The position numbers and the translations under genes are program-made. 35,706 nucleotides of DNA from Solirubrobacterales bacterium (GTDB lineage: Bacteria > Actinomycetota > Thermoleophilia > Solirubrobacterales > Solirubrobacteraceae). Below, piece after piece: positions 1 to 27,891 of the stretch; the first letter of the stretch is position 1; the number at the start of each line of letters is the position of its first letter. The DNA lies in the NCBI GenBank assembly GCA_025964355.1, contig JAOPZB010000162.1:1-35706 (forward strand), in the 5' to 3' direction. Below the pieces are notes generated by a model. That model was not told the origin of the DNA, searched no databases, and worked only from the letters and a program-made list of their open reading frames with translations.

Positions 1-236
1 GGCTCTACAAGATCGTCCAGGGCCACGCCCGACGGGCCGGGCTGCAGGAGAAGATGAGCCCGCACACACTCCGCCATACGTTCGCCACCCACCTTCTCGC
101 CGGCGGCTGTGATCTGCGCTCGCTGCAGGAGATGCTCGGGCACGCCGACCTCGCCACCACGCAGATCTACACCCACCTGTCCGCCGAGCGCCTGAAGGAC
201 GCATACTTCAGCGCGCACCCGCGCGCCACCCGTTGA
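1..236 (+). CDS. Tyrosine recombinase XerC/XerD, C-terminal part (5' truncated by window)
   Basis: The catalytic end of a Xer-type site-specific recombinase, which resolves chromosome dimers at dif with FtsK. The open frame is in phase from base 3, so the gene begins outside the window. Visible are the [12 protein letters not shown] box (the H-x-x-R pair of the family), [14 protein letters not shown] with the second His and the nucleophilic Tyr, and a short C-terminal tail ending in RATR. The spacing of these residues is as in intact XerD, so there is no sign of decay. Its TGA overlaps the TTG proposed to start deoB, suggesting translational coupling. XerC cannot be separated from XerD with only the C-terminus visible. 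Confidence 0.93.
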
Positions 237-12204: not shown

Positions 12205-12930
12205 CTAGAGCGCGTCGCCGGGCCGCACGAACGTGACCTCCGGCACGATGCACGCGGGCGAGACCCTCAGCAGGAAGCGCACGGACTCGGCGATGTCCTC
12301 CGGGCGGATCATGTCCTCGGGGGCGACATGCTCCTTGACGAAGTCGGTCATCGGCGTGTCGACGAACGCCGGGCACAGGGCTGTGGACTTGATGCCTTCG
12401 GCGCCGAGTTCCTTGTTCATGGACTCGGTCCAGCCGACCACTCCATGCTTGGCCGCGGAGTAGACCGACAGCCACGCCTCGCCATGCTTGCCCGAGATCG
12501 ACGAGGTGTTGACGACGAGCACGTTCTTGTGCTCCGCGGCGGCCTCACGCAGCATGCCGATGCATTCGCGGTAGAAGAGGATGATCGAGCGCAGGTTGAT
12601 GTCGAGCTGCATGTCCAGGCGCTTGGTCTGGATCTCGGCGACCGTCGCGCCGACACCGACACCGGCGTTGTTGACGAGCACGTCGAGGCGTCCGTGGCGC
12701 GCACGGTGAGCCTCGACGACCTTCTGGATCTCGGCCTCGTCGGCGATGTTGGCGGCGACCGCCTGCACGTCGAACCCGTCGGCGGCGAGGCCGGCGACGG
12801 CGGCGTCGAGCTTCTCGGGTCTCCTCGCCGCCATCGTGAGTGCGAAGCCCTCCTCCGCGAGGACCCTGGCGATCGCCAGCCCGATCCCGCTCGATGCCCC
12901 CGTGACGATTGCTGCGCGCTCTGCTGACAT
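12205..12930 (-). CDS. Short-chain dehydrogenase/reductase (classical SDR)
   Basis: 241-residue NAD(P)-dependent Rossmann-fold oxidoreductase. TGASSGIG (10-17) is the cofactor loop, NNAG is at 87-90, and the catalytic Ser144, Tyr157 and Lys161 are in TSSISGK and YSAAKHG. CPAFVDTPM follows as the usual post-catalytic PG-like segment. The basic AARRPEK after the second strand suggests NADP(H). ATG 12930 is chosen over the longer frame for its AAAGGAAGGGA ribosome-binding site. Related to FabG and sorbitol/steroid dehydrogenases; the substrate is not identifiable. It is convergent with the preceding hypothetical gene. Confidence 0.92.
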   Translation of the reverse strand: MSAERAAIVTGASSGIGLAIARVLAEEGFALTMAARRPEKLDAAVAGLAADGFDVQAVAANIADEAEIQKVVEAHRARHGRLDVLVNNAGVGVGATVAEIQTKRLDMQLDINLRSIILFYRECIGMLREAAAEHKNVLVVNTSSISGKHGEAWLSVYSAAKHGVVGWTESMNKELGAEGIKSTALCPAFVDTPMTDFVKEHVAPEDMIRPEDIAESVRFLLRVSPACIVPEVTFVRPGDAL

Positions 12931-13043
12931 CTGCGTCCCTTCCTTTGATGAGCGAAACCGAACCGCCGCCCATCGGGACGGCGGCCGGGAGCATTCCACA
13001 TCTCGCTGGTAGCGTCTCCGAGGTCGCGCCCCAGGGCGCGAGC

Positions 13044-13117
13044 GGGCCCGTAGCTCAGTTGGTCAGAGCTGCCGACTCATAATCGGTAGGTCGCTGGTTC
13101 GAGTCCAGCCGGGCCCA
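13044..13117 (+). tRNA. tRNA with anticodon CAT (elongator Met or Ile2)
   Basis: Cloverleaf: acceptor GGGCCCG 13044-13050 with CGGGCCC 13110-13116, D stem GCTC/GAGC, anticodon stem GCCGA/TCGGT with loop CTCATAA (anticodon 13078-13080), T stem GCTGG/CCAGC, discriminator A. It is not initiator tRNA: there is no triple G-C anticodon stem and no 1:72 mismatch. The C4-G69 pair resembles E. coli tRNA-Ile2, whose CAT is modified to lysidine by TilS, so Ile2 is as likely as Met. Confidence 0.93.
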
Positions 13118-13118
13118 T
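13110..13118 (+). repeat. Possible attachment-site core at the tRNA 3' end (left copy)
   Basis: The nine bases CGGGCCCAT end the tRNA acceptor and recur in the same orientation at 15002-15010, just past an integrase fragment. Nine bp is short for an att core and contains the GGGCCC palindrome, so chance is possible. Confidence 0.35.
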
Positions 13119-13698
13119 TTATCGCAGTGGGGTGACGCCAGCCGACTTTCCTCGGCACCGCTGGACATTTGGCCTGCTGGAGCGGGACAGGAGGCGACTG
13201 AGCGCGACCAGCAAAGACGGCCTGTTTTCGGCGCGGCCTGCCGCGCAACGAGACAACTGGGAGGCAGGGCGCGGCGGGGGCGGAGGCAATCGTTCGGTGG
13301 CAGCGGCTGCCCGGATTCGTGAACGATGGCTGACCGCGGCCTGGCTGTTAGCGACGCTATTTGCCGGGAGCGGAGCTCCGTGTTGCGCACGAGCGGGGGT
13401 TCATGGCATGGGCCGAACTCGTAGCGGTCGAAAGGCCGGACCGTGGGCCCCCGCCCGTAGGCGTCGGCCCGCTGGTCTGAGCACGGACGCACGGCGGCGG
13501 AAGGGCGGACGGACGGCCGGTCGGAGCGCGCGATAGCGCCCCCGCCCGGACGGCCGCCCGTACCGCCGCTACCGAGCGCCTCGCGCCCAGTCCAGTCGCC
13601 TCCCGCTGCTGGGGAGGTCACCCTCGGACATGGCAAGCTGCATCTGTTGAGCGCCCGGCTCGAGCCAGTTCCTCAGACCCGCGCGCCGACGCGACTCA
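13119..13698. other. 580-bp stretch without a convincing gene
   Basis: Open frames exist on both strands but have Arg/Gly/Pro-biased, repeat-like translations and no motif. Around 13440-13570 the + strand is a purine/GC-skewed tract with GGACGGACGGCC-type near-repeats followed by the complementary CCCGCCCGGACGG type. Together with the tRNA before it and the integrase remnant after the next gene, it may be decayed element DNA. Confidence 0.5.
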
Positions 13699-14514
13699 TC
13701 ATGGCGCCCGCCCGCCCCTTGCCACTTGGGGTCGTCCGACCATAGAGCCGCCGGCAAGAATCGTTTGGAGGTCAATTGCCAGCATGACCCAGAGTGCGAC
13801 TTCACCGAACGCGACAACCGGAAGCACGCTGGCCGCGCCTACCCCGAGCATCAGGGCGACCTGGCGAACTTCATCCGGATTCCAGAAGCCCATCCCCGAG
13901 CCCGCCCGAGGCGGAAGCGGAAGGGGCTGGTGGCGGATCAGCCACAACGCTTGGAGTCCGTCCGAGGGCAGTCCCCGTGTGATCGGATTCCATGTGCCCC
14001 GCCGCGGGACCAGGTTGAGCGCCGCCTGAGACCCGCTTACGGCGGTGAGCATGAACATGATCGTCCGCGCGGTACCCGCGGTGAAGAGCCCTCCGAGGCA
14101 AAATAGGGCCGCCAGAACGAGGTTGGTCGCTGGACCCGCCAGTACTCTGATTAAGGCTTGGCGTCTGGACATGGCCGGCGAGCTTGTGCATCGGCCGCCA
14201 GCCCCAATCGGCGAAAACGCAACGAGAAGACGCCCGACTCGTAGCCGGGCCGATGGGTGGGCCCGGCCCACGCGTATCCGCACACCCTCCTGCGTAAACC
14301 GCAGAGCCGCCGCGGCGTGGCCGAGCTCATGCGCGAGCGTCAACAACGGCACTGCCAAGAAGGCTGAGACAATCACGACAGCGTTCTCCGACACCTTCGA
14401 TACATCGGGTTTGGCGTTCAGACACTTGAGGGAGGCGGGCTCGAGAGGCGCACCGCTTGCCCCTCGGGTCGCACGAGTGGGGAGTGCGGGCACATCACCG
14501 CCTAGCAGGGACAT
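13699..14514 (-). CDS. M50-like membrane metalloprotease (site-2 protease family)
   Basis: The frame is open to 14634; ATG 14514 is proposed, giving 271 residues, but the start is uncertain. A hydrophobic helix runs straight into LLTLAHELGHAAAALRF, the HExxH zinc site. Further hydrophobic segments include VLAGPATNLVLAALFCLGGLF, and then the loop NLVP ... GLPSDGLQAL, which corresponds to the N-P-x-x-x-D-G third-ligand motif of M50. A last membrane helix lies near the end. Members cut transmembrane anti-sigma factors or work in sporulation; no partner gene is nearby. The location between a tRNA and an integrase remnant suggests cargo of an integrated element. Confidence 0.78.
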   Translation of the reverse strand: MSLLGGDVPALPTRATRGASGAPLEPASLKCLNAKPDVSKVSENAVVIVSAFLAVPLLTLAHELGHAAAALRFTQEGVRIRVGRAHPSARLRVGRLLVAFSPIGAGGRCTSSPAMSRRQALIRVLAGPATNLVLAALFCLGGLFTAGTARTIMFMLTAVSGSQAALNLVPRRGTWNPITRGLPSDGLQALWLIRHQPLPLPPRAGSGMGFWNPDEVRQVALMLGVGAASVLPVVAFGEVALWVMLAIDLQTILAGGSMVGRPQVARGGRAP

Positions 14515-14618
14515 TCCCGCATGCTCGCTCAGGCGACGGCGTTCTCGCTTGGGCGACGCGCCGGAAAGTACTGTGGCAGAGCCGAGATCGGATCGTCGGA
14601 AGTAAGCTCGATCCGGAG

Positions 14619-14957
14619 ATGGCACGCCCAACAAACCTGGCCCTCATGAGGCTACGTCGCCGCGCGGAGGCGGCGACAAGCAATGCTTGTCGAGACCTTC
14701 GCCGACGGTTCGGGCAGCCATCGATGGACTTCTACGAGCTGCGGCACTTCTGCGGCGCATGGCTATTCAACGACCTCGAATTGCCTGCCCAGGAAGTCGC
14801 ACATCAGCTGGGACACAAGGACGGCGGTGCACTCGTCCAACGCCTCTACGGCCACCCCTCAGAGCGGCTTGCTAGGGAGCACATCAAGCGCGCTGTCCGA
14901 GGCAGATCACGCGAGGTGGTTCCGCTATCGGAGGCATCCCGGACGCAGACCTCGTGA
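14619..14957 (+). pseudogene. Truncated tyrosine integrase (C-terminal catalytic remnant)
   Basis: About 112 codons. MDFYELRHFCGAWLFNDLEL and VAHQLGHKDGGALVQRLYGH carry the second catalytic Arg, the His of LGH and the nucleophilic Tyr of a phage-type integrase; the usual first His of H-x-L-R-H is Tyr here. The core-binding domain and the first half of the catalytic domain, with the first Arg and Lys, are missing. The in-frame extension upstream (to 14457) is antisense to the M50 gene and not integrase-like. It cannot be a working recombinase by itself. With the tRNA at 13044 and the repeat at 15002 it looks like the relic of an integrated element. Confidence 0.75.
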
Positions 14958-15001
14958 CGGCGCTCAGCTATGTCGGCCCGGGGCGCGCTTGCGTAACCCA
15001 T

Positions 15002-15010
15002 CGGGCCCAT
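15002..15010 (+). repeat. Possible attachment-site core (right copy)
   Basis: Second direct copy of CGGGCCCAT, 44 bp after the integrase remnant's stop and 1.9 kb from the tRNA 3' end. It is the expected position for a distal att site if this region was once integrated. Confidence 0.35.
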
Positions 15011-15035
15011 GTCGCACGCACGTCTACCCGGGCCG

Positions 15036-15059
15036 GGCGGCCGGGCTGCATGGGCCGCC
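15036..15059 (-). terminator. Hairpin after the S15 hydrolase gene
   Basis: 7-bp GC stem (GGCGGCC/GGCCGCC) with a 10-nt loop, 2 bp past the stop of the minus-strand hydrolase gene. There is no U tract, as is common in high-GC actinobacteria. Confidence 0.35.
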
Positions 15060-15060
15060 G

Positions 15061-17472
15061 TCAGGAACCGTTGTTCGCGAACGCCTGGTAGGAGCGGCAG
15101 GGCTCGTTGCGCAGGCTCGGGCACGCGGGGATCCCGGTGGGCACGCTGACGCCCGGAACGATCGGGAGGACGAGGCTCGACGGCATGCTGGGCGAGAAGG
15201 CGATCGACTCCGTCGCAGTGGTGCCCGCCGGCTGTGTATGGCTGAACGACCAGATCGGCTGCGTTCCGTTGGGCGCGGCAATCGTGACCCTGATGCGCGA
15301 GCCCGCGCGGTAGGCGTGGCCCTGGAAGTAGAGCGGGATGACGACCGGGACGTATTCGTTCGCCGGCATGGGCTGTACATCGGATGCGAGGAATGTCGGG
15401 ATCGGCTGCAGCAACGTGGGCTTCTGCTTGAACATGTTCGTCGAGGTGGTGGCCAGCTTGCGCTCGCTCGCCCGGATCCAGCCATCCTGGACGAAGGTCT
15501 CGTTGCCGTCGGGGCGGACTTCGCTGACGGTCGCCTGGAAATCGACGTCGGGAGTGGACGACTTGACCCACAGGTGGACGGCGCCGCCGCCGATCGCGGT
15601 GGTGTCGGCCGTGAGCGGCGCCGACACGTAGGACACGGCAGAGCCCGCCGGGGGCTGCGCCCAGTTGTATTCCCACTTGGATGCGCTGCTCCAGAGACCG
15701 CCTCCGCCCGTGTTGGCCGAGTAGTCGGTCGGCGGTGTGGCGCTCGCATCGGAGGTGTAGGAGTCGACGCCTTCGGCGGTCGGCTGCTGTGCATTGAGCG
15801 TGCCGCCCGACCCGAAATACAATGACTGAGCCGTCGTGCCGGGGACCGGGAACGCGGAGAACGACCGTTCGAAGCCCGGGTACGGATTGCCGGCCGCCGT
15901 CGTGCCGCCGGGCGGCGCTTCACCTGCGCCGTTGTCGAATAGCACCCTGATCTGCGGGAGCGCTTCGAAGGCGGACAGCGCAGATTCGTAGGTCGGCTGT
16001 TCCTGGATCGGATCCGGCGGAAGCGTGACCACATCGCCTTCGGGCAGCCCCATCGCTTCCTTGTACACGAGCGGGGCTGCCGCACGTACCGGCGCCTGGT
16101 TTTCGATCGGCGCCTTGTGCGCGACGTAAAGCTCTAAGAAGTCATACAGCCGGTTGTAGGTGTATGGATCGAGCGAGTCGATATGGGCGCCGTTGGTGAA
16201 CGTGAACCACTTGCGAGCCGTACCGGTGAAGTGCTGAGCGAGATCGGCACAATGGCCGCCGGTCTGCTCGTCCTCCCATTGGCAGGCCATGAACGTCGGC
16301 ACGTTGATCTTCTTGACGAACGTGACCGGGTCGAGCGGGTCCGCCACAGACGGGCTGTAGGTCGAGTTCGCCTGGATCTTCGCCATCAGGTCAGCCGCCT
16401 GGCCGTGGAGGGCCTGATTGGCCGCGCAGGTCTGATCGCCTTCCTGGATCCGCTTGTATGCCCACGCCTGGCCGTGGCCGGGACCGGCCGGTTCGGCGTT
16501 CTGCTGGCGCTGTTCGGCCCAGGCCACCGCGAAACCGTCGTTGAGGACGCCGCCGGGGTAGAGGGTCGTCGCCGTCGAGTCGATCACCGACACCGGCGCG
16601 ATCGCTGCGAGGTCGGGCGGCTGGAGCTGCGCCGTGAACAGCTGGCTGATCCCGCCGTAGGAGATGCCGAGCATGCCGACCTTGTTGCCGAGCACCCACG
16701 GCTGGTGGGCGATCGTCTCGATCACGTCGTAGCCATCGAGGTTCTGCAGTGGTTCGAAGAAGTCGAAGGCGCCGCCCGAGCAGCCGGTCCCGCGCATGTT
16801 CACGTCGACGACGGCGAAGCCCATCAGGTTGGCGAGCACGGCGATGCCGCTTTCCGGGCCGGCCGGGTTCGCGTAGCCGTAGCCCGAGTACTCGATCAGC
16901 GTCGGATACGGCGGCGTGTAGCTCGGCGTCGGCACACCCGGCTGCGGGAAGTTCGGAAAGTGAAAGCTCGACGGCACGCCGGGCTCGCCCGCCGGACTGG
17001 TCGGCGGGTGGACGGTGATAGCCAGCTGGGTGCCGTCACGCGTCGTCAGATACGTGTATCCGTTGTTGGGGATCGACTGGTTGTAGATGCTGGGATTCCA
17101 CTGCGTCGCGGTTTCCGAGTGGACCGTGATCCGGCCCGAGGTTTCGCCCGTGGAGGTGGCCCGAACCCGATAGCCGTTCCCCGGCGCCACGTTGCGGAAC
17201 AGCAGACCTCCGAGCGAGTCCGCGTTCTGCGTGTACACGGTCGCGCCGCTCGAGCTCAGCAGAGACGCCTGAGCATTCGCCCCCAGGCCCGTGACATACA
17301 CCTGCTTCACGCTTCCCTGCGCGCTGAACGCCGACGCGCTCGCGGCCGCCACCAGACAAACGGCGAACGCCACGAGCGTGGCAATGACGCTGGTCCGCGC
17401 TCGAAGCGCGAACCCCGACACCACGCGTCGACCCTCGCCCGCGCGTCCCACCACCCGACGATTTATCAGCAT
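15061..17472 (-). CDS. Secreted CocE/NonD-type (X-Pro dipeptidyl-peptidase S15) hydrolase
   Basis: 803 residues from ATG 17472, chosen for its GGGGAG site and the signal peptide it exposes (TSVIATLVAFAVCLVAAASA, then ASAFSAQG as a likely cleavage region). The mature protein has an alpha/beta-hydrolase core: RGTGCSGG, then GMLGISYGG with nucleophile Ser271. Asp401 in CQWEDEQ and His430 in TNGAHIDS are proposed for the rest of the triad. The C-terminal third is a jelly-roll like the PepX C-terminal domain (DVDFQATVSEVRPDG, SRIRVTIA). Family members cleave X-Pro peptides, cocaine esters or acyl groups; an extracellular peptidase or esterase is inferred. Confidence 0.88.
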   Translation of the reverse strand: MLINRRVVGRAGEGRRVVSGFALRARTSVIATLVAFAVCLVAAASASAFSAQGSVKQVYVTGLGANAQASLLSSSGATVYTQNADSLGGLLFRNVAPGNGYRVRATSTGETSGRITVHSETATQWNPSIYNQSIPNNGYTYLTTRDGTQLAITVHPPTSPAGEPGVPSSFHFPNFPQPGVPTPSYTPPYPTLIEYSGYGYANPAGPESGIAVLANLMGFAVVDVNMRGTGCSGGAFDFFEPLQNLDGYDVIETIAHQPWVLGNKVGMLGISYGGISQLFTAQLQPPDLAAIAPVSVIDSTATTLYPGGVLNDGFAVAWAEQRQQNAEPAGPGHGQAWAYKRIQEGDQTCAANQALHGQAADLMAKIQANSTYSPSVADPLDPVTFVKKINVPTFMACQWEDEQTGGHCADLAQHFTGTARKWFTFTNGAHIDSLDPYTYNRLYDFLELYVAHKAPIENQAPVRAAAPLVYKEAMGLPEGDVVTLPPDPIQEQPTYESALSAFEALPQIRVLFDNGAGEAPPGGTTAAGNPYPGFERSFSAFPVPGTTAQSLYFGSGGTLNAQQPTAEGVDSYTSDASATPPTDYSANTGGGGLWSSASKWEYNWAQPPAGSAVSYVSAPLTADTTAIGGGAVHLWVKSSTPDVDFQATVSEVRPDGNETFVQDGWIRASERKLATTSTNMFKQKPTLLQPIPTFLASDVQPMPANEYVPVVIPLYFQGHAYRAGSRIRVTIAAPNGTQPIWSFSHTQPAGTTATESIAFSPSMPSSLVLPIVPGVSVPTGIPACPSLRNEPCRSYQAFANNGS

Positions 17473-17563
17473 GCAGCGACTCTCCCCACCCGCGCGCACG
17501 CGCAGAAGCTCGGCCCCTTGCGCCGGTCCGGTCCCTTGGCCCGGCACAGCTCGAATGGGCCCC

Positions 17564-17569: not shown

Positions 17570-17683
17570 CCCACGTAGGCGCGTTCTAATCATCAATGCG
17601 AGAAAGGCCTCGGCCCGTCGACCGGGCCAGCGCAGGACTAGGATGGTGAAAGCGTCAGTACCGCGCATGGGGGGCGGTTACGG

Positions 17684-18211
17684 ATGAACAGATCTGGTGG
17701 ACGGCGGCCGACTGAGAAACGTTGCGGAAGCGCGCGCGGCAGGGCCACTGCAACGACCCTGATCGTCGCGAGTGCCCTGGCTGTCGTGCTCGCCGCCCTC
17801 ACCCTCGCCCCGGGCGCGGCGGGCGCCCGGCACGCGCGCGCCGCGCGCGTTCTCAACGTGCGCGACGAAGGCCATCTGCATTCCGTCGGGATCTCGGGCT
17901 CGCGCCTGACCGAGGAAGGGCCGGTCTCGGGCACGATCCCCGGGAGGGTGCGGGTCTTCTTCGCCTACAACGGCAGCCCAACCGTCGCCGCGCAGTTCAC
18001 GATCTACAGCCGTTACGGCTCGATCAGCGGGCGCGGTCAGGGAAGGGTGAGCGATCCGGCGAGTCCGGCGCCGAGCTTTCGCGGTGCTCTGTCGATCACG
18101 GGCGGCAGCGGACGCTACGCGCACGCCCGCGGCAGCGGTGAACTGTTCGGCGTGTTCTACCGCCGGAGGTTGGGGTTGACCGTACAAGCGATCGGCAAGC
18201 TCAATTACTGA
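17684..18211 (+). CDS. Secreted protein of unknown function (possible allene-oxide-cyclase-like barrel)
   Basis: 175 residues with a GGGGGG ribosome-binding site 9 nt before ATG. An Arg-rich n-region and the hydrophobic TTLIVASALAVVLAALTLAPGAA form a signal peptide (residues 22-44) ending near AGARHA. The mature part is beta-rich: EGPVSGTIPGRVRVFF, TIYSRYGSISGRGQGR, and GALSITGGSGRYAHARGSGELFGVFYRR. The last piece matches the G-x-Y-x-x-A-x-G-x-G pattern common to eight-stranded barrels of the allene oxide cyclase/dirigent type. That is fold-level guessing, and no active site can be assigned. The next gene overlaps or abuts its stop. Confidence 0.75.
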   Translation: MNRSGGRRPTEKRCGSARGRATATTLIVASALAVVLAALTLAPGAAGARHARAARVLNVRDEGHLHSVGISGSRLTEEGPVSGTIPGRVRVFFAYNGSPTVAAQFTIYSRYGSISGRGQGRVSDPASPAPSFRGALSITGGSGRYAHARGSGELFGVFYRRRLGLTVQAIGKLNY

Positions 18212-18980
18212 GCCCAGTCAGCGATCTCGGACCTGCGCGGCGTTCGCACTCGGCGCCCTCCTCACCTGGGCGCTCATGGCCGTGCTTCCGAGTCGGGCAG
18301 GCGCAGCGCAGGGCGCGACTCTGAGCGTGAAGTTCACGCCCGAGCGGCTCGGTGCGCCGACGACCCTGTCGTTCGGCTTTGCGGTCGCCCCGGGCGGCGC
18401 TGCTCGTAACGCGCTGACAGGCGTCGAGCTGTCCTACCCGGCGACGCTCGGCATCAGCACGAGCGGGCTCGGCCTCGCCTCCTGCTCTCCGGCCCTCCTG
18501 GAATCCGGTGGGCCCGCCGCCTGCCCGGCCAACTCGCACATGGGCTACGGCAGTGCGCTCGTCGAGATCCCGATCGGGCACGAACTGGTGGGGGAGACCG
18601 CCACCGTGGCGCTCCTCGCCGGGCCCTCGCCGAACACCTCCCTGCAGCTGCTCGTCAGTGTGACCGGCGAGTCGCCTGTCGCCGCGCGGATCGTGCTCTC
18701 CGCGCAGCTGCTGCCGGGGCGCCTGGATATCCGGGTGCCGCCGGTACAGATCCTGCCCGAAGCTCCCTACGTGGCGCTCGTGCGACTGCGCGCAACGCTC
18801 GGCGGGCGCCTGAAGTACTACGAACGCGTCCACGGCAGGACGGTCGCCTACCGCCCCAGAGGGATCGTTCTGCCCACGGTCTGTCCTCGCAACGGCTTCC
18901 GCTTCGCGGCTGCGTTGACCTTCCTCGACGGCAGCCGCTCGCTGGCGAGGGCCACGGTCCCATGCCCCCGACGCGGCTAG
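18204..18980 (+). CDS. Secreted protein of unknown function (start codon unclear, perhaps ATT)
   Basis: The first ATG (18276) gives 234 residues but cuts a signal peptide in half. Extending the frame upstream restores CAAFALGALLTWALMAVL with Arg residues before it and an AGA-AQG cleavage site, yet no ATG, GTG or TTG exists before the in-frame stop at 18177. ATT at 18204, overlapping the previous gene's end, is the only near-cognate start there in a suitable place. The mature part (LSVKFTPERLGAPTTLSFGF, ASCSPALLESGGPAACPANS) has paired cysteines and beta-strand character, like many actinobacterial exported proteins of unknown role. Conservatively the gene runs 18276-18980. Confidence 0.65.
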   Translation: MTEPSQRSRTCAAFALGALLTWALMAVLPSRAGAAQGATLSVKFTPERLGAPTTLSFGFAVAPGGAARNALTGVELSYPATLGISTSGLGLASCSPALLESGGPAACPANSHMGYGSALVEIPIGHELVGETATVALLAGPSPNTSLQLLVSVTGESPVAARIVLSAQLLPGRLDIRVPPVQILPEAPYVALVRLRATLGGRLKYYERVHGRTVAYRPRGIVLPTVCPRNGFRFAAALTFLDGSRSLARATVPCPRRG

Positions 18981-19013
18981 CCTGCCGCCGCCGGCTGACG
19001 GCGAGGCCGACGG

Positions 19014-19253
19014 CTAGTTACAAACGCGGCAACTTCCCGCCGCGCAGGAGCACGCCGGTGGCATGGGGCCCACGCACCGCGCCCCCCATCGTCGCACCCA
19101 CTCGATCGCGCCCGGCTCTCTGCGATCGTCGGAGCCGCCGGGCCAGTAGCGGCGAAGCATCGCTGAAACGAGCCGCTCGGTGTCGGCCTCGGCCCTGGTC
19201 GCGACCGACTCGATATGCAACCCGATTCGTTGATCGCGAGGGTGCTCTGCCAT
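19014..19253 (-). CDS. Small Cys-rich protein (C-x-C-x4-C-x2-C end)
   Basis: 79 residues. The N-terminal half is a charged helix (IESVATRAEADTERLVSAML); the end is PPACSCAAGSCRVCN, whose closely spaced cysteines could bind zinc or a metal cluster. I recall small proteins with such C-x-C ... C-x2-C-N ends in Thermoleophilia, without known function. No Shine-Dalgarno is seen; TATATC lies about 12 nt before the ATG on the same strand. It follows the 120-residue gene after a very strong hairpin. Overlapping frames on both strands exist but look like shadows. Confidence 0.55.
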   Translation of the reverse strand: MAEHPRDQRIGLHIESVATRAEADTERLVSAMLRRYWPGGSDDRREPGAIEWVRRWGARCVGPMPPACSCAAGSCRVCN

Positions 19254-19297
19254 TTGACACAGAGATATACCCCGTTGCGGCGGAGTTCATGCCCGAG

Positions 19298-19332
19298 CCC
19301 CGGTGCGTCGCCCCGCGGGCGACGCACCGGGG
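19298..19332 (-). terminator. Perfect 15-bp hairpin after the 120-residue gene
   Basis: A 15-bp perfect inverted repeat (CCCCGGTGCGTCGCC and its complement) with a 5-nt loop, which one more C-G pair can shorten to 3. It starts 15 nt beyond the stop of the minus-strand gene at 19348. There is no U tract on either side, so it may act as a U-less terminator or an mRNA-stabilising end. Confidence 0.6.
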
Positions 19333-19347
19333 CAAGCGGCTACGACG

Positions 19348-19710
19348 CTATGCGTTCTGCGGGACGCGCGCGACGCTCTCTTGATAGAGAGTCATCTGCC
19401 GTGCGACCTCGTTGTTGGTGAAGCCTTCGATGTGGCGCAGGCGCTCGACTACGAGGCTTGCGTCGATCGTGTTGCGCTGAAACTCGTCGTCCTCGCGGAC
19501 CGCGGCGAGCTGCTCGGCCGAGCCATGCAGCTCGATGTAGCCGTCGAGCTCGCCGTTCGGCCCGAGCAGGACGACGTCGAACTTCTCGATGCGCCCCTCT
19601 TGCTGCATTCGCCCGCAGATGCCCATAGCCTCGTTGAACACCTCGAGACCGCGCTCCTCGCGTCCGCGAACAGGCGTGCTCCAGCCGATAAACAGGACTC
19701 GGTCGGACAT
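19348..19710 (-). CDS. Conserved hypothetical protein, 120 residues
   Basis: ATG 19710 is preceded by AAGGGGGG. The sequence MSDRVLFIGWSTPVRGREERGLEVFNEAMG, then RIEKFDVVLLGPNGELDGYIELHGSAEQLAAVR and a helical end, suggests a small alpha+beta (ferredoxin-like) fold. No signal peptide, membrane segment or metal motif is present. I recall similar stand-alone proteins in actinobacteria but no function. It is 58 bp downstream of the HD-GYP gene on the same strand, with a hairpin between, and is followed by the strong hairpin at 19298-19332. Confidence 0.75.
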   Translation of the reverse strand: MSDRVLFIGWSTPVRGREERGLEVFNEAMGICGRMQQEGRIEKFDVVLLGPNGELDGYIELHGSAEQLAAVREDDEFQRNTIDASLVVERLRHIEGFTNNEVARQMTLYQESVARVPQNA

Positions 19711-19731
19711 GCCGGCCCCCCTTCTGCTCAC

Positions 19732-19752
19732 GGCCCGGCCCGTAGCCGGGCC
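19732..19752 (-). terminator. Hairpin between HD-GYP gene and 120-residue gene
   Basis: 8-bp stem (GGCCCGGC/GCCGGGCC) with a 5-nt loop, 16 bp past the HD-GYP stop. It could terminate that gene or sit in the leader of the next one. Confidence 0.4.
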
Positions 19753-19768
19753 TGTCCCGCGAACGCTA

Positions 19769-20890
19769 TCACCCAAACGGGTTAGCCGAGCGACTCGAGC
19801 GAACGGGCATCGGCTCTCCTGCGCCGGAGCCGCGGGTACTGACTGGGGCAAGCGTCGGTTCAGAGCGCGAGATCTGAGTGGCCGGCGTGCCGCGTCGTGG
19901 CGGTCTGGCGCGCTTGGAGAGGTCCTTGCGCGTCTGGAGGAAGGCCGCCACGACCCGCGGGTCGAACTGGCTTCCGGCCGCGCGCCTGATGTTGGCGATC
20001 GCCTGACTGACGGGCCATGCCGCTTTGTAGGGCCGGTCATGCGTGAGCGCGTCGAAGACGTCGGCGACGGCGACGATTCGCCCGACGAGCGGGATGTTCT
20101 CGCCGGCGAGCCCCTCCGGATAGCCGCTGCCGTCCCACCACTCGTGGTGGGTCATGGCGACGGTGGCCGCCATCTGTAGCGCCGGCGAGCTGCTGTTGGC
20201 GAGCAGGCTGGCGCCGAGCGCGGCGTGTCGTCCCATGATCTCCTGCTCATGGGGGTTCAGGTTTCCAGGCTTGAGAAGGATGTCGTCGGCGATCCCGATC
20301 TTTCCGACGTCGTGCAGCAATGCGGCCTCGTGCAGGAGCTCGACCTGATCGCTCGCCAGGCCCAGCCTCGTGGCGATCTCCGCCGCGACGGCCCCCACGC
20401 GCTGGGTGTGCTCAGAGGTGCCGTCGTTGCGGTACTCGGCCGCGCGGGCCAGCACGTGCAGCGTCTCGGCGCGAGCGTCGTCCAGCTCGCGAGTGCGCTC
20501 GTCCAGCGAGTCACCGTAACGACTCACGAGCTCTGCTTCGCGCGTGCGCCGCTGGTCGATGAAGCCTCCGAGCAGGGCGCTGAGGACGAAGAACGCCGCG
20601 GCGCGGTTCAGATAGCCCGGCAACGTCAGCGCTCGCTCGCTGGCGGTCAGATCCCACATCGCGACCAGCGCAAACGCCATCACCGCGCCCACCAGCCCAC
20701 CACGAAGCCCCATGGCGAGCGACAGCACCGCGATCGGTACGACGAACAGGAAGGCGCTCCCATCGCCGACGTTCGGATCGCTCACGCGAAGCGCATAGAT
20801 CACGAGAAACAGCGCCAGGGCGAGCGCGAGCACGCGTCCCCTCTCGAGGATCAGCCGACGAGCAGATACGAGCCGTGCATGCACTTCCAT
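19769..20890 (-). CDS. Membrane-anchored HD-GYP domain phosphodiesterase
   Basis: 373 residues from ATG 20890 (GTG 20893 and TTG 20896 also possible). The first 110 residues hold about four membrane helices (VLALALALFLVIYAL, AFLFVVPIAVLSLAMG, GLVGAVMAFALVAMW, AAAFFVLSALLGGFI), a sensor-like module. A charged linker follows, then an HD-GYP domain: SEHTQRVG, LLHDVGKIGI with His193-Asp194, HHEWWDGSGYP with the GYP at 256-258, and VADVFDALTHDRPYK. HD-GYP enzymes hydrolyse cyclic-di-GMP, and all core residues appear present. The C-terminal 60 residues are basic and disordered. A close paralogue lies at 23109. Confidence 0.93.
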   Translation of the reverse strand: MEVHARLVSARRLILERGRVLALALALFLVIYALRVSDPNVGDGSAFLFVVPIAVLSLAMGLRGGLVGAVMAFALVAMWDLTASERALTLPGYLNRAAAFFVLSALLGGFIDQRRTREAELVSRYGDSLDERTRELDDARAETLHVLARAAEYRNDGTSEHTQRVGAVAAEIATRLGLASDQVELLHEAALLHDVGKIGIADDILLKPGNLNPHEQEIMGRHAALGASLLANSSSPALQMAATVAMTHHEWWDGSGYPEGLAGENIPLVGRIVAVADVFDALTHDRPYKAAWPVSQAIANIRRAAGSQFDPRVVAAFLQTRKDLSKRARPPRRGTPATQISRSEPTLAPVSTRGSGAGEPMPVRSSRSANPFG

Positions 20891-21022
20891 CACCAATCGG
20901 TACCCCCGTCCCTCGAAAGTACCTATCGCACCTCGTCGGTGGACGGATATTAGTTATGAGGGAGCGCGTCTTTTTCGCCCTGCGGGCGCACAAACGTGAC
21001 CACATCAGACGCGGCGCTCCTC

Positions 21023-21028
21023 TACGGT
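21023..21028 (+). promoter_or_regulatory. Putative -10 element of the methyltransferase gene
   Basis: TACGGT ends 7 nt before GTG 21036 and overlaps the alternative GTG 21027, so it favours the shorter protein. The 145-bp gap to the divergent HD-GYP gene also has a small CGCCC/GGGCG hairpin near 20976. Confidence 0.35.
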
Positions 21029-21035
21029 GCGCTCC

Positions 21036-21794
21036 GTGGCGCTTCATCCTCTCGCCGCTACGTTCGCCGGGGCAGCAGACGCATACGAGCGCGGGCGGCC
21101 AGAGTACGCGCCCGCGGTCGTCGGCGCGATCTCCGCCGAGCTGAGCATTCCTCCGGGCGCGCCCGTGCTCGATCTCGCGGCCGGAACGGGGAAGCTCACC
21201 CGCGCGCTGCTCAGGTCGGGATTGGACGTCGTGGCCGTCGAGCCGCAGCTGGCGCTGCGCGAAGTGCTCGCGGCGACCGTCGGCGGCGAGCGCGTCCGCG
21301 ACGGGCTTGCCGAGGCGATCCCGCTTCCCGACGAGTCGGTCGCGGCCGTCACGGTGGCCGATGCCTTTCACTGGTTTGACCGCCAGGCCGCCTTGGAGGA
21401 GATTCGGCGGGTGCTGCGTCCCGGCGGCGGGCTTGCGGTGCTCTCCACGGTGCCGGACTTCGGTGGGGCGTCGTGGGCGCACGAGATCGGAACGCTGATG
21501 GCGGCCTTGCGTCCCGAGCATCCGCATTTCGACGGGCCGCCCTGGCAGGATGCAGTGCGTGCGGCCGGCGGCTGGAGCGCCCCGCGCGAGATCCGCGTCA
21601 CCACCTCCCAACCGGCGGTCCCGGAGCGATTCGTCGATTACCTCGCGTCCATCAGCTGGGTTGCCTCGCTCCCCGACCGCCAGCGCGCCGAGACGCTTGC
21701 GCAGATCGCCGCGCTCATCAGTGCGGGCGAGACGCCCGCCGAGCTTCCCGTGCACGTCCTGATCGGCCTCGCAGCGCCGGTCACGCCGGCTTGA
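21036..21794 (+). CDS. Class I SAM-dependent methyltransferase
   Basis: 252 residues from GTG 21036. The N-terminal AATFAGAADAYERGRPEYAP is typical of UbiE/Methyltransf_11-type enzymes. Motif I is VLDLAAGTGKLTRAL, then VVAVEPQLALREVL (motif II acidic position), EAIPLPDESVAAVTVADAFHWF (motif III/post) and EIRRVLRPGGGLAVL (motif IV). The acceptor substrate cannot be told. It is divergent from the membrane HD-GYP gene and is followed by the DUF2294 gene after about 285 bp. Confidence 0.9.
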   Translation: MALHPLAATFAGAADAYERGRPEYAPAVVGAISAELSIPPGAPVLDLAAGTGKLTRALLRSGLDVVAVEPQLALREVLAATVGGERVRDGLAEAIPLPDESVAAVTVADAFHWFDRQAALEEIRRVLRPGGGLAVLSTVPDFGGASWAHEIGTLMAALRPEHPHFDGPPWQDAVRAAGGWSAPREIRVTTSQPAVPERFVDYLASISWVASLPDRQRAETLAQIAALISAGETPAELPVHVLIGLAAPVTPA

Positions 21795-22080
21795 GCGTGT
21801 TCGCCTGCGCTCGGCCTTAGAGGAGGGAGAGCAGGTGGGCCGCTGGCGCGACGGGCTCTTGACTCCCCCTCACACTTGCGCGCCGGCGGGGAGTACGCTG
21901 GGGAGACGCGAGTTGGCGCCGGCATCGCGCACGACGCGGGCAGGATGCCGATTTACGGACCTGGCGGACGGATCACGCGTCTCTCTTCCTGCCTTTCGCC
22001 GTGGCCCCATACCAGGAACGAGGCGAGAAACCGAGTTCCAGGTGCTTCACTCCCAAGACGGGCATGTCGAGCGAGGGGTG

Positions 22081-22488
22081 ATGGCCGCAGCGATCGCCCG
22101 CTCGACCGTTCAGCTGCTGAGCGAGTACACCGGCCGGGGACCGACGAGGGCCCGCGCCTACATCACTTCCGAGCTCATCACCGTTGTGTTGCGCGACACG
22201 ATGAACCAAGGCGAGCGAAGCCTCGTCCGCGAAGGAAAGCGCGACCTCGTCCGGGCGGTGCGCAAGGCCTATCAGGACACCATGGGGCCGTCGCTGATCG
22301 ACGCCGTGGAACGTCACTCCGGCCAGCACGTGATCGCCTTCCTGAGCGACAACCATCTCGACCCCGACATCGCCGTCGAGTCGTTCGTGATGGCCCCTCA
22401 CACCGATGGCGACGGCGTGCTCAGCGACGGTTACGTCGCCGCGGCGGACGGCGCGGCCACGACGGACGGGCCCGGCGCGGCAGCCTAA
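22081..22488 (+). CDS. DUF2294 (Na+-translocating subunit-like) protein
   Basis: 135 residues from ATG 22081. GRGPTRARAYITSELITVVL, GERSLVREGKRDLVRAVRKA, YQDTMGPSLIDAVERHSG and VIAFLSDNHLDPDIAVESFV match the pattern I know for DUF2294. That family is sometimes labelled as a sodium-translocating decarboxylase subunit without experimental support. GAGGGG lies just before the ATG, with tight spacing. An in-frame GTG at 22078 and a long open frame upstream (to 21835) exist, but the upstream part lacks family features. It is convergent with the STAS gene. Confidence 0.75.
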   Translation: MAAAIARSTVQLLSEYTGRGPTRARAYITSELITVVLRDTMNQGERSLVREGKRDLVRAVRKAYQDTMGPSLIDAVERHSGQHVIAFLSDNHLDPDIAVESFVMAPHTDGDGVLSDGYVAAADGAATTDGPGAAA

Positions 22489-22496
22489 CGCGGACC

Positions 22497-22889
22497 TCAG
22501 GCAGCTGGGGCGGAGCTGTCGGGCTCGAACCGGAGGGCTGCGGTGACACCCGTCAGCTCGAACAGCCGCTGCACCGGGCCGCCGGCGCCGGCCAGTGAGA
22601 AGCTGTGGCCCTTCCCACCGCAGAGTTTGTCGGCCGCGAGAACCGCACGCAGGCCCGTCGAGTCCATGAACGTGAGCTCGCTCAGATCGAGGACGATCGC
22701 ACTCGTTCCGTTGTCGCAGAGCGACGCGATCGTCGATTCGAGGATCGGCGCCGAGGCGATGTCGAGCTCGCCGGCGAGAATCAGCCGGTGCCGACCGCCG
22801 GCGCTGATGTCGCGCACGGTCAGCCCGGCGAGTGAGCTCACGGCCGTACTCCGCGCTCGGTAGCGAGATTCGGTTGCGAAACTGGCCAT
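22497..22889 (-). CDS. STAS-domain protein (anti-sigma factor antagonist-like)
   Basis: 130 residues. LILAGELDIASAPILESTI and IVLDLSELTFMDSTGLRAVL are the STAS strand-helix pairs; Ser77 in the D-S-T-G motif is the residue phosphorylated in SpoIIAA/RsbV-type antagonists. The C-terminal VQRLFELTGVTAALRF helix-strand is also typical. It probably binds a partner anti-sigma kinase, but no such kinase gene is in the window. It is on the same strand as the second HD-GYP gene, about 220 bp downstream, and convergent with DUF2294. Confidence 0.88.
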   Translation of the reverse strand: MASFATESRYRARSTAVSSLAGLTVRDISAGGRHRLILAGELDIASAPILESTIASLCDNGTSAIVLDLSELTFMDSTGLRAVLAADKLCGGKGHSFSLAGAGGPVQRLFELTGVTAALRFEPDSSAPAA

Positions 22890-23061
22890 CTGCGACGAAC
22901 CACCGGCGCTCCCCTACGCTCAAGCGGTCTACGAGGATCCACCCCAGGGTCCCTCAAAGCTCCGCACACGAACGAATAATCATCTGACAGAGGTCGCCCC
23001 CGGTTTGGGCGCCGGCGCGGCCTCCGCCAATATCAGCCCTGGACCCCGTGGGAGCCCTGAA

Positions 23062-23096
23062 CGCGAGCGATGCTAGCGCTCGCGGCTGCCGCGAGC
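23062..23096 (-). terminator. Alternative hairpins after the second HD-GYP gene
   Basis: Two mutually exclusive 8-bp stems share one arm: CGCGAGCG 23062-23069 with CGCTCGCG 23077-23084, or GCTCGCGG 23078-23085 with CCGCGAGC 23089-23096. They lie just past the HD-GYP stop in the 220-bp gap before the STAS gene. There is no U tract. Confidence 0.4.
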
Positions 23097-23108
23097 AAGA
23101 AACCGTTC

Positions 23109-23858: not shown

Positions 23859-24015
23859 GGGAATCCCTCGACCCCGCCGGCCCAGAGCATGACCCAGCCG
23901 CGGCGAACAGGACCGATGGCTGAGCGTCGAAAGGCGCGGAAATTGCGCGCCCTTCGGGCACGCGCCTGCTCGCGATCGGCGGTTTGCGCCGGGACCAGAC
24001 GGGCAAGAGTCCCAG

Positions 24016-24858: not shown

Positions 24859-24928
24859 AGGCTCGGGAGCGCAGGGCGGCGCGCGCTCGACTGTCAAGGA
24901 AGCAGCCGGATGCGCCGATGGGTGGGGG

Positions 24929-26233
24929 GTGCCGACATCTGCGCAGGACAGGACCCAGCATGTAGACCCGTTGCTCGCGCGGGCTGAGCAGGCGGCCGCG
25001 GCCGCGCTGCGCGAGCTGCCCGAGGCCCTCATCATCGTCTTCGACGACGAGCTGCGCTTCGTGGTGACGGCCGGGCAGGTCCTCGCGCGGGCCGGCGGTT
25101 CGGGCTTCGGAGGCGAGGGACAGGCCGTCGCCGGCGCGTTTCCGCGAGACGTCTGGGCGTCGATCGAGCCGCTGTTCGCCTCGGCGCTCGACGGTGAGAC
25201 CCGCTCGCGTGAGGTCTGGACCGCCGACCAGCGCCACTGCCTGATGGTCGATGCGGGTCCGCTGCGCTCCGGCGCGCCAGACGAGGAGGGCCCAGCCGGC
25301 GCGGCCGGCATCGCCGTCGTGCTCGACATCACGGCCCGCCGCCGCGCAGACCTGTTGTCGACGAGGACCGTCTCAGCCCTCGCCGAGGTCCCCGAGCGCG
25401 CTCCCGTCGGGACCGGTCTGCTCGACGGCGACGGCCGCTGGCTGCTCGTCAGCCGCCCGCTCTGCGACATCACCGGCTACACGGCCGAGGAGCTGCTCGG
25501 CACGCGCTTTGACGGGATCGTGCATCCCGAGGACGCCGACAACGACGCGGGCGAGCGCGCCCGCCTGCTGGCCGGCGAGATCCCCGCCTTCCAGACCGAG
25601 AAGCGCTATTTCGACGCCGCCGGCGAGACCGTCTCGGCGATCCTCTCGATGTCGCTCGTGCGCGACCGCGACGGTGCGCCGCTGCACTACGTCGCACAGC
25701 TGCAGGACATCTCCGAGCGCAAGCGCCTCGAGCAGAGCATGCGCGAGCTCGGCGACCACGATCCGCTGACCGGGCTGCGCAACCGCAGGCTCTTCGAGCA
25801 CGACCTCATGCTCCAGGTCGCCCGCTCGCAGCGCTACGGCGAGACGGCCGGGCTGCTCGTCGTCGATATCGACGCGTTGGGGCAGATCAACGACGACCAC
25901 GGACGGGGCGTCGGCGACGAGATCCTCGGTGTCCTCGCACGGGCGCTCACCCGCCGCCTGCGCCAGACCGACCTCGTGGCCCGCATCGGCGCCGACGAGT
26001 TCGCCGTGCTGCTCCCGCATATCGACCGCGAGGGAATCACCGTCGTTGCCGATGGGCTGCTGCGCGTGATACCCGCCTACAGCGTCGACACCGGTGCGAG
26101 CGTGCTCCATCCGTCCGCGAGCATCGGCTCGGTGCTGATCGACCGGCGGACCGCCAGCGCCGAGCAGGCGCTGACCGAGGCCTACCGCGCGATCCAGATC
26201 GCGAGGTACGCCACGCCCTCCCCGCCGAGCTGA
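24929..26233 (+). CDS. PAS-GGDEF protein with degenerate GADEF site
   Basis: 434 residues from GTG 24929. Residues 30-135 form a PAS-like domain ending VVLDITARRRADLL. Residues 160-265 are a clear PAS with GLLDGDGRWLLVSRPLC, DITGYTAEELLG, HPEDADND and QDISERKRLEQSM. The GGDEF domain opens DHDPLTGLRNRRLFEHDL and has DIDALGQINDDHGRGVGDEIL. The signature is GADEF (354-358) instead of GGDEF, with the I-site RQTD (345-348) exactly five residues before it. Replacement of the second Gly may reduce or abolish diguanylate cyclase activity while product binding is kept, so a sensor-effector role is possible. Confidence 0.9.
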   Translation: MPTSAQDRTQHVDPLLARAEQAAAAALRELPEALIIVFDDELRFVVTAGQVLARAGGSGFGGEGQAVAGAFPRDVWASIEPLFASALDGETRSREVWTADQRHCLMVDAGPLRSGAPDEEGPAGAAGIAVVLDITARRRADLLSTRTVSALAEVPERAPVGTGLLDGDGRWLLVSRPLCDITGYTAEELLGTRFDGIVHPEDADNDAGERARLLAGEIPAFQTEKRYFDAAGETVSAILSMSLVRDRDGAPLHYVAQLQDISERKRLEQSMRELGDHDPLTGLRNRRLFEHDLMLQVARSQRYGETAGLLVVDIDALGQINDDHGRGVGDEILGVLARALTRRLRQTDLVARIGADEFAVLLPHIDREGITVVADGLLRVIPAYSVDTGASVLHPSASIGSVLIDRRTASAEQALTEAYRAIQIARYATPSPPS

Positions 26234-26340
26234 CGGCCGTTCAGAGCCGCAGGCGCGGAGCTCGCCGCGCACGCCGGGATCGTTCGCCGCTGCGCGCGCC
26301 GCACCCCGGCCCGTACGCCCGACCCCTCCGCCGCTGTCAA

Positions 26341-26346
26341 TACGCT
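26341..26346 (+). promoter_or_regulatory. Putative -10 element of the ppx gene
   Basis: TACGCT ends 6 nt before the ATG at 26353. No Shine-Dalgarno is present. Confidence 0.35.
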
Positions 26347-26352
26347 CACGGC

Positions 26353-27891
26353 ATGAAGCCCGACGAGCGGCTAGCCGTCATCGACCTCGGCTCGAACTCC
26401 TTCCGACTGGTCGTCTTCACCGCCGGTGACGGGTGGTGGAAGCGCACCGATGAGATCTACGAGCCCGTGCGCATCGGCCAGGGATTGATGGCGACCGGCA
26501 AGCTGGGAGACGAGCCGATGGAGCGGGCGCTCGCCACGCTCGACGTGTTCGCCCACTTCTGCCGCGCCAGCGGGCTCGGCGCCGACTCGGTCGACGCGGT
26601 CGCCACGAGCGCCATTCGCGACGCCGAGAACGCCGCCGGTTTCCTGAAGCGGGCTCGCAAGTGCCTCGGGCTGCCGATCCGGGTGCTCAGCCGCGAGGAG
26701 GAGGCGCGCTATGGCTACCTGGCGGCCGTGAACTCGACGACGCTGGTCCGCGGCTCGGTGCTCGACCTCGGCGGCGGCTCCCTGCAGCTCGTCGACGTGG
26801 CCGATCGGCTGCTGCGCAGCTCGGGGTCCTGGCCGCTGGGCACGGTGCGCATGAGCGAGCGCTTCCTGCCCCCCAACGGGCCCGCCAAGCGGCGGCAGCT
26901 CGAGGAGCTCCGCGCCCACGTGGCAGGTGAGCTCGAGGCGGTTCCATGGCTCGCCGGTGCCGGCGAGGCCGACGGCGGGGGCCGCATCGTCGGCATCGGA
27001 GGAACGGTCCGCAACCTGGCAGCCGCCGCCCAGCGCGCGGCCGGGCTGCCCTCCAACGGCGTACAGGGGATGGTCATCGAGCGCGAAGCCCTCGACGGGC
27101 TGGTGCAGCGACTCGCCGCGCTGCCGGCGTCCGAGCGCGCGAGCATTCCCGGGATCAAGCCGGCGCGCGCCGACCTGATCCTCGCCGGGGCGCTGGTGGT
27201 GCAGGCGGTGCTCGAGACCGGCGGCTTCGACGGCCTGGAGACCACGGAGGCGGGCCTGCGCGAGGGCGTCTTCTTCGAGCGCCTGCTGGCCGACCGCGCG
27301 GAGCCCCTGTTCGACGACGTGCGGCGTACCAGCGTCATGAACATGGCCGCCCAGTACCAGGTCGACGCCCATCACACCCGCCACGTCGCCGATCTCGCGC
27401 TGGGGATGTTCGACGAGCTGGCCGAGGTGGGCCTGCACGACGGCGACCCGCGCGAGCGCGAACTGCTGTGGGCGGCCAGCATGCTGCACGACATCGGCAT
27501 GTCGATCGACTACGACGATCACCACAAGCACTCGCGCTATCTGATCCTCAACGGCGGCCTGCCGGGGTTCACGCCGGTGGAAACGGCGATCATCGCCCAG
27601 GCGGCCCGCTACCACCGCAAGGGCATGCCCGTGCCGGGACCGATGGCGCCGCTGTTCGGCGAGGGTGACGCCGCCCGCCTCAACCGCTGTGCCGCGCTCC
27701 TGCGCCTGGCCGAGGACCTCGAGCGCTCACGCGACCAGCTCGTGCGCCGCACCAGCATCGCCCTGCGCGACGACGAGGTGCAGCTGCGCCTGATCGTCGA
27801 CGGCGACGCCGCCGTCCCCCGCTGGGCGGCCGGGCGCGAGCGCGAGCTCTTCGCGCGGGCCTTCCATCGCGGCCTCGCCGTCGCTGCCTGA
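26353..27891 (+). CDS. Ppx/GppA phosphatase (exopolyphosphatase or pppGpp phosphohydrolase)
   Basis: 512 residues. The ASKHA-fold N-terminal half has LAVIDLGSNSFRLVVF, TSAIRDAENA, LSREEEARYGYLAAVNS with the putative catalytic Glu, SVLDLGGGSLQLVDV and IVGIGGTVRNLA. The C-terminal half is an HD-type helical domain (HHTRHVADLALGMFDELA, ASMLHDIGMSID, AIIAQAARYHRKGMP). This two-part build is that of long Ppx/GppA enzymes, which degrade polyphosphate or convert pppGpp to ppGpp; the sequence cannot separate the two. It lies 120 bp after the PAS-GGDEF gene and is convergent with the glycosyltransferase gene. Confidence 0.93.
   Translation: MKPDERLAVIDLGSNSFRLVVFTAGDGWWKRTDEIYEPVRIGQGLMATGKLGDEPMERALATLDVFAHFCRASGLGADSVDAVATSAIRDAENAAGFLKRARKCLGLPIRVLSREEEARYGYLAAVNSTTLVRGSVLDLGGGSLQLVDVADRLLRSSGSWPLGTVRMSERFLPPNGPAKRRQLEELRAHVAGELEAVPWLAGAGEADGGGRIVGIGGTVRNLAAAAQRAAGLPSNGVQGMVIEREALDGLVQRLAALPASERASIPGIKPARADLILAGALVVQAVLETGGFDGLETTEAGLREGVFFERLLADRAEPLFDDVRRTSVMNMAAQYQVDAHHTRHVADLALGMFDELAEVGLHDGDPRERELLWAASMLHDIGMSIDYDDHHKHSRYLILNGGLPGFTPVETAIIAQAARYHRKGMPVPGPMAPLFGEGDAARLNRCAALLRLAEDLERSRDQLVRRTSIALRDDEVQLRLIVDGDAAVPRWAAGRERELFARAFHRGLAVAA

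What the first reader, a model, noticed from the sequence alone, without database searches (positions are those of the whole stretch)
13044..15010. Relic of an element integrated at a CAT-anticodon tRNA
A tRNA gene, 580 bp of gene-poor DNA, an M50-like protease gene and a C-terminal tyrosine-integrase fragment lie in a row. The last nine bases around the tRNA 3' end (13110-13118) recur in direct orientation at 15002-15010, 44 bp after the integrase fragment. This is the layout of an element inserted in a tRNA 3' end that has lost most of its body. The repeat is only 9 bp, so chance is possible.
Basis: partly seen in the sequence, partly recalled or inferred. Interest (0 to 1): 0.55.

Follow-up and report, generated by a model that had tools for sequence, protein, structure and literature searches.

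The report
Mobile-element remnant beside a tRNA gene
A soil bacterium carries the worn-down end of a mobile DNA element next to a transfer-RNA gene, and related species carry similar or different newcomers at the same spot, so this is an ordinary but clearly readable landing site for mobile DNA.

Summary
The tRNA (13044-13117, CAT) is most likely tRNA-Ile2, not tRNA-Met. The 9-bp repeat CGGGCCCAT (13110-13118, 15002-15010) is not significant alone: 10 of 100 shuffled windows held two or more copies. Comparison supports it. The 18-bp sequence holding the right copy (14991-15008) was sought in 146 family genomes with up to 2 mismatches: 38 hits, of which the only four with 0-1 mismatch are the window and three sites within 4 kb downstream of the same tRNA in two other species, beside remains of the same integrase. 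A relative has a 4.9-kb element with a full-length related integrase; its 13-bp repeat starts at the same base of a tRNA-Val. A third case uses tRNA-Pro. The integrase fragment lacks its N-terminal part and first catalytic Arg, so it should not act alone. The tRNA-to-ppx interval varies from about 2 to 43 kb in six genomes, and a second kind of element uses this tRNA. Correction: DNA right of 15010 is not shown to be the tRNA's native neighbour; no empty site was found, and the lost part cannot be measured. Best call: decayed tDNA element, a known kind.

The parts
13044..13117 (+). tRNA with anticodon CAT, most likely tRNA-Ile2; the integration target
   Evidence: 63 of 74 bases as in E. coli ileX, 53 of 74 as in another CAT tRNA of the same genome
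13110..13118 (+). left att core CGGGCCCAT: last 8 bases of the tRNA plus one
13442..13586 (.). noncoding stretch 84% identical to DNA about 170 bp after a probable tmRNA 3' end in G022; probably element DNA
   Evidence: tmRNA recognised by eye
13699..14634 (-). M50-type protease ORF, possible cargo
   Evidence: Pfam 6.3e-8; distant relatives in 5 of 145 other family genomes, all one other genus
14496..14558 (.). second short match to the G022 tmRNA-side stretch, inverted
   Evidence: 74.6% over 63 bp
14457..14957 (+). ORF whose part from about 14691 is the C-terminus of a tyrosine integrase (ELRH, LGH, YGHP kept; N-terminal domains and first Arg absent)
14991..15001 (+). element-side arm GCGTAACCCAT before the right core
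15002..15010 (+). right att core CGGGCCCAT (attR)
15061..17547 (-). S15/CocE-type hydrolase gene right of the remnant; not shown to be the native neighbour of the tRNA
24929..27891 (+). GGDEF gene followed by ppx/GppA gene: conserved chromosomal block at the far side of the variable interval

Best explanation
A tyrosine integrase of a family that also occurs on IMG/VR viral contigs inserted an element into the 3' acceptor strand of a tRNA-Ile2(CAU) gene. Crossover used a short core (about CGGGCCC) at the last eight tRNA bases. The element's own copy of these bases restored the tRNA, and the old 3' end was pushed to the far end, just after the integrase gene, as attR (15002-15010). Part of the element was then lost: the integrase keeps only its C-terminal part. 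What remains is about 1.9 kb with an M50 protease gene, an integrase stub and two att cores. Shown: the layout, the conserved attR sequence at this tRNA in three species, related integrases paired with repeats at the same position of other tRNAs, and a variable interval after this tRNA. Inferred: the recombination itself, the deletion, and that the protease is cargo.
For: 18-bp attR sequence with 0-1 mismatch only at this tRNA in three species among 146 genomes; in the window and G009 the integrase tail runs into it with 75.6% identity over 135 bp. G041: full-length related integrase, tRNA-Val(CAC), 13-bp repeat starting 7 bases before the last tRNA base, as in the window; 4865 bp from core to core. 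G003: tRNA-Pro(TGG), 12 bp, same start; G007: same tRNA, 12 bp, same start. Similar arm before the right core in these (AACCCAT, AACCAAT, AACCATT, CACCATT). No pair of 19 sequences after the tRNA shares more than about 33 bp directly after it at E 1e-5. tRNA-to-ppx distances of about 2.0, 3.2, 3.4, 8.6, 13.2 and 43.5 kb in G005, G008, G015, G017, the window and G002.
Against: The 9 bp alone are within chance. In the 250 bp after 79 integrase ORFs there is no excess of 8-bp tRNA 3' ends over controls (34 of 79 against 1230 of 3160) and a modest one at 9 bp (21 of 79 against 440 of 3160); only matches of 14 bp or more stand out (6 of 79 against 4 of 3160). G018 C82, a same-genus full-length relative, lies in an element with a 46-bp anticodon-loop-type repeat at tRNA-Val, and three more distant integrases (G056, G321, G130) also go with 45-47 bp repeats. 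The 43-kb interval of G002 holds no integrase of this family and no tRNA fragment, so interval size alone does not prove integration. No empty site was found.
Confidence: 0.82

Rival explanations
1. The integrase stub is a real remnant at a hotspot, but the 9-bp repeat is a coincidence and the true ends of that element lay elsewhere, for instance nearer to 24.9 kb.
For: 9-mer within chance; a 10-bp word on the control strand; no excess of 8-bp tRNA ends after integrases; DNA right of 15010 is not the tRNA's shown native neighbour.
Against: The sequence around the right copy recurs, exact or with one mismatch, after the same tRNA in two other species and nowhere else at that level in 146 genomes; same start base and similar arm with tRNA-Val and tRNA-Pro.
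Confidence: 0.12
2. The order tRNA, integrase stub, hydrolase gene is an assembly artefact of the genome bin.
For: 264 contigs, 84% complete; the right neighbour gene has other surroundings in relatives.
Against: tRNA, integrase tail and motif occur together in G009 (10 contigs) and G007 as well; GGDEF-ppx further right follows the order seen in seven relatives. The join right of 15010 itself is not tested by these.
Confidence: 0.05
3. The 1.9-kb piece is not dead but a small passive element whose two att cores can still be excised and inserted by a related integrase supplied by another element.
For: Both cores are intact and identical over 9 bp; related integrases exist in the genus.
Against: No second copy of the 13119-13700 piece in the own genome and no sign of an empty site; no intact integrase of this kind was seen at this tRNA in the genomes searched.
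Confidence: 0.08

Closest known systems
Genomic islands in tRNA and tmRNA genes (Islander database, PMC4383910; abstract and passages seen)
   Same: Intact tRNA, direct-repeat fragment of its 3' end downstream, integrase gene between them, tandem arrays at one tRNA
   Different: Very short fragment (9 bp), integrase truncated, outer flank rearranged
Actinobacterial integrative conjugative elements (PMC3218068; passages seen)
   Same: Actinobacterial host lineage, tyrosine integrase, insertion in a tRNA 3' end; related integrases may use different tRNAs
   Different: No replication or FtsK/SpoIIIE-type transfer gene recognised in what remains
SNJ2-type integration with a very short att in an archaeal tRNA (PMC8371274; passages seen)
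   Same: A very short att (14 nt) at the amino-acid-accepting end of the tRNA
   Different: Archaeal element, different integrase; no sequence link tested
BroJett022 (G041) tRNA-Val element, found here
   Same: Related full-length integrase, core starting at the same tRNA base, similar arm before attR
   Different: Not truncated, 4865 bp core to core, other tRNA, other genes inside

Membership tests
Genomic island in a tRNA gene | intact tRNA at one end | tested here: met
   ARAGORN and Rfam score a complete tRNA
Genomic island in a tRNA gene | displaced fragment of the tRNA 3' end in direct orientation at the other end | tested here: inconclusive
   9-bp copy, within chance alone, supported by three-species conservation of its surroundings
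Genomic island in a tRNA gene | integrase gene inside | tested here: met
   only a C-terminal fragment
Genomic island in a tRNA gene | empty site in a relative | tested here: not met
   none of the relatives compared joins the two flanks
Phage-integrase family (PF00589) | family match and catalytic residues R...HxxR...Y | tested here: inconclusive
   fragment itself below the Pfam threshold, but it aligns with five longer members, and 5 of the 7 aligned rows match PF00589; first Arg absent by truncation
Actinobacterial integrative conjugative element | replication and FtsK/SpoIIIE-type transfer genes | tested here: not met
   none recognised among the ORFs of the 1.9-kb piece scanned; a lost body cannot be excluded
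tRNA-Ile2 (lysidine type) | CAT anticodon and closer likeness to ileX than to tRNA-Met; C4-G69 and C5-G68 (recalled as TilS determinants) | tested here: met
   (63 of 74 against 53 of 74); pairs read from the sequence
tRNA-Ile2 (lysidine type) | C34 modified to lysidine | not testable with these tools
   needs tRNA sequencing

The most novel reading that the evidence does not exclude
This integrase family keeps a constant element-side arm ([AC]ACC[AC][AT]T) next to a short, exchangeable core of 9-13 bp copied from whichever tRNA 3' acceptor strand it targets (Ile2, Val, Pro). Elements could then switch tRNA targets by changing only the core, and the remnant pairs left behind could still be moved in trans.
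Probability: 0.22. Interest if true: 0.5.

Novelty: new member of a known kind. Interest (0 to 1): 0.27.

Why it matters
It points to tRNA-Ile2 in a little-studied soil lineage (same genus as the palsa_744 Solirubrobacterales bin) as a repeatedly used landing site for at least two kinds of element, and gives a short att signature with which other decayed or complete elements of this integrase family could be found. It does not change what is known of integration into tRNA genes.

Tried and rejected
Repeat alone as proof: rejected, within chance.

A general rule that a tRNA 3' end lies just after these integrases: only partly supported. Of 79 integrase ORFs 6 have a match of 14 bp or more within 250 bp (controls 4 of 3160), but at 8 bp there is no excess. 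Of the six, L080 is followed by a whole tRNA-Ser gene, L200 and L061 go with anticodon-loop-type copies (L061 is an ORF of only 34.6 bits), and L083, L178 and L179 are short copies 24-47 bp after the stop. In one search other exact words of 11 bp or more that cover a tRNA 3' end but are shorter than the 45-47 bp repeats start elsewhere than at -7: G018 C82 Val (11 bp, -4), G078 Pro (14 bp, -12), G164 Trp (11 bp, -10) and Pro (11 bp, -9); at -7 are G078 Trp (11 bp), G003 Pro, G041 Val and G007 Ile2. No control word exceeded 10 bp.

The hydrolase gene right of it: no tRNA-Ile2 in the stretches held around its eight copies; in G013 only 1.9 kb beyond its 3' end is held.

Structured RNA in 13440-13600: DNA-fold z -1.77, 10 of 200 shuffles as good, and no Rfam family in 12900-15100 except the tRNA; not pursued. 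N-terminal integrase remains in the window: nothing with a usable E-value, while G007 holds one. Solved-structure search with the fragment: one unrelated weak hit. Paper searches were seen as listings; passages were seen in PMC8371274, PMC4383910 and PMC3218068. Williams 2002 is only cited inside these and was not read.

Full report
What is there. The window is one whole contig of a 264-contig genome bin. The tRNA at 13044-13117 has anticodon CAT. It has 63 of 74 bases as in E. coli ileX, annotated tRNA-Ile(CAU), and 53 of 74 as in another CAT tRNA of the same genome, so it is most likely tRNA-Ile2. Then follow about 580 bp without a convincing gene, a minus-strand M50 protease ORF (13699-14634; Pfam 6.3e-8), a plus-strand ORF (14457-14957) whose last part is the C-terminus of a tyrosine integrase, and 44 bp later the second copy of CGGGCCCAT. 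Homology to integrases starts at about 14691, so the N-terminal domains and the first catalytic Arg are missing while ELRH, LGH and the YGHP tyrosine remain (the roles of these motifs are recalled).

Is the repeat more than chance? Not by itself. Two copies or more occur in 10 of 100 shuffled windows, and a 10-bp word for the same tRNA end lies on the opposite strand. The comparative evidence is better. In two other species, G009 and G007, remains of the same integrase lie after the same tRNA. G007 C46 has the length and match positions of PLYX01000025.1, a Solirubrobacterales bacterium, isolate palsa_744. The sequence GCGTAACC[AC]ATCGGGCCC is exact in the window, in G009 and once in G007, and occurs with one mismatch a second time in G007. 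The search covered 146 family genomes with up to two mismatches: 30 genomes had a hit, 38 hits in all, and the 34 hits other than these four have two mismatches. The reversed-pattern control gave 13 hits, none in these three genomes. In the window and G009 the integrase tail runs straight into the motif, with 75.6% identity over 135 bp; G007 holds tail copies in two related units one after the other.

Related integrases and their att cores. In G003 the same start is seen for tRNA-Pro(TGG) with 12 bp, and in G007 for the Ile2 tRNA with 12 bp. The bases before the right core are alike: AACCCAT, AACCAAT, AACCATT, CACCATT, an arm that these tRNAs do not have. A loose pattern of arm plus core gave 20 hits in the loci then held: 8 rows (7 different sites) are the att-like sites just named plus one in G018 C53 with the same 15 bases as G003, and 12 are not tied to such a site, 7 of them from loci that one search had chosen by a similar pattern.

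Results against a simple rule. A full-length integrase of the same genus, G018 C82, lies inside an element with a 46-bp anticodon-loop-type repeat at tRNA-Val, about 4.4 kb from the tRNA; three more distant ones (G056, G321, G130) also go with repeats of 45-47 bp; many integrase loci show no tRNA in the stretch held. After 79 integrase ORFs only matches of 14 bp or more exceed controls (6 of 79 against 4 of 3160); at 9 bp the excess is modest (21 of 79 against 440 of 3160) and at 8 bp there is none (34 of 79 against 1230 of 3160).

The site is variable. In 19 loci of relatives the SDR gene and the tRNA were found together, directly adjacent in 18 and 3.9 kb apart in G054; G024, of another genus, has a similar tRNA without the SDR gene. 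After the tRNA, no pair of 19 sequences compared (some cut short by contig ends) shares more than about 33 bp directly after it at E 1e-5. The conserved far side is a GGDEF-ppx pair (window 24929-27891): of eight relatives fetched for it seven have both genes in this order, and in the G007 stretch only GGDEF was found. The distance from tRNA to ppx is about 2.0 kb in G005, 3.2 in G008, 3.4 in G015, 8.6 in G017, 13.2 here and 43.5 in G002. The G002 interval holds no integrase of this family and no tRNA fragment, so its origin is open. A second kind of element uses the same tRNA through its 3' half: copies of about 37-51 bp occur in G012, G018, G020, G022, G023 and G054. The G022 copy in L063 is followed by sequence 84% identical over 151 bp to that after the tRNA in G013, as expected of an attR; the other copies showed no such long match.

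Right of the remnant. The S15-type hydrolase gene at 15061-17547 was fetched in eight relatives and none of these stretches holds the tRNA, although in G013 the contig ends 1.9 kb beyond the gene. Parts of 17600-26300 match 17 of 23 other genus genomes at E 1e-30. So the DNA between 15010 and 24929 has its own history, and the original size of the element cannot be read from the window.

Other traces of mobility. Window 13442-13586 is 84% identical to a stretch about 170 bp after what looks like a tmRNA 3' end in G022 (identified by eye; ARAGORN reports none, the gene being cut by the contig end), with a second short inverted match. In 146 genomes the next best match to 13119-13700 has E 3e-6 against 3e-33. 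The M50 protease has distant relatives in five other genomes of 146, all of one other genus. The integrase family was found on 12 IMG/VR contigs of 31-98 kb.

Verdict. A decayed element in the 3' end of a tRNA-Ile2 gene, by the known way of integration into tRNA genes (PMC4383910, PMC3218068, PMC8371274; passages seen). The core is at the short end of what those passages describe. The kind is known. The exchangeable-core idea is a hypothesis from three tRNA targets. Confidence in the best explanation was set slightly lower on rechecking (0.82), since the DNA to the right of attR is not a shown native flank.

Noticed in passing
window 6-188: C-terminal piece of a XerC/XerD-type tyrosine recombinase cut by the contig start.
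   Followed up: no
L041, L059-L066: Copies of the 3' half of the same tRNA in six relatives, one 1.3 kb after the tRNA itself in G012: traces of a second kind of element.
   Followed up: partly
L072 6114-10977 (G041): Element of 4865 bp core to core at tRNA-Val with a full-length integrase; by eye it also encodes an aquaporin-like protein and an ArsC-like arsenate reductase (not scanned against families).
   Followed up: partly
L178 near 11173, L179 near 10986: Two IMG/VR contigs carry 14-15 bases of a tRNA-Arg(TCT) 3' end 24-37 bp after their integrase stop codon: probable phage attachment sites.
   Followed up: no
L067 (G022 C70, contig end): Element-like DNA after a probable tmRNA 3' end shares a 145-bp GC-rich stretch with window 13442-13586.
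   Followed up: partly
window 15061-17547: Large S15/CocE-type hydrolase gene present in eight relatives (70-85% identical) with differing gene surroundings.
   Followed up: no
L034 8856-8878 (G009): The right att site of G009 is nearly palindromic, AACCCAT-CGGGCCCC-ATTGGGTT, as expected of paired integrase binding sites.
   Followed up: no
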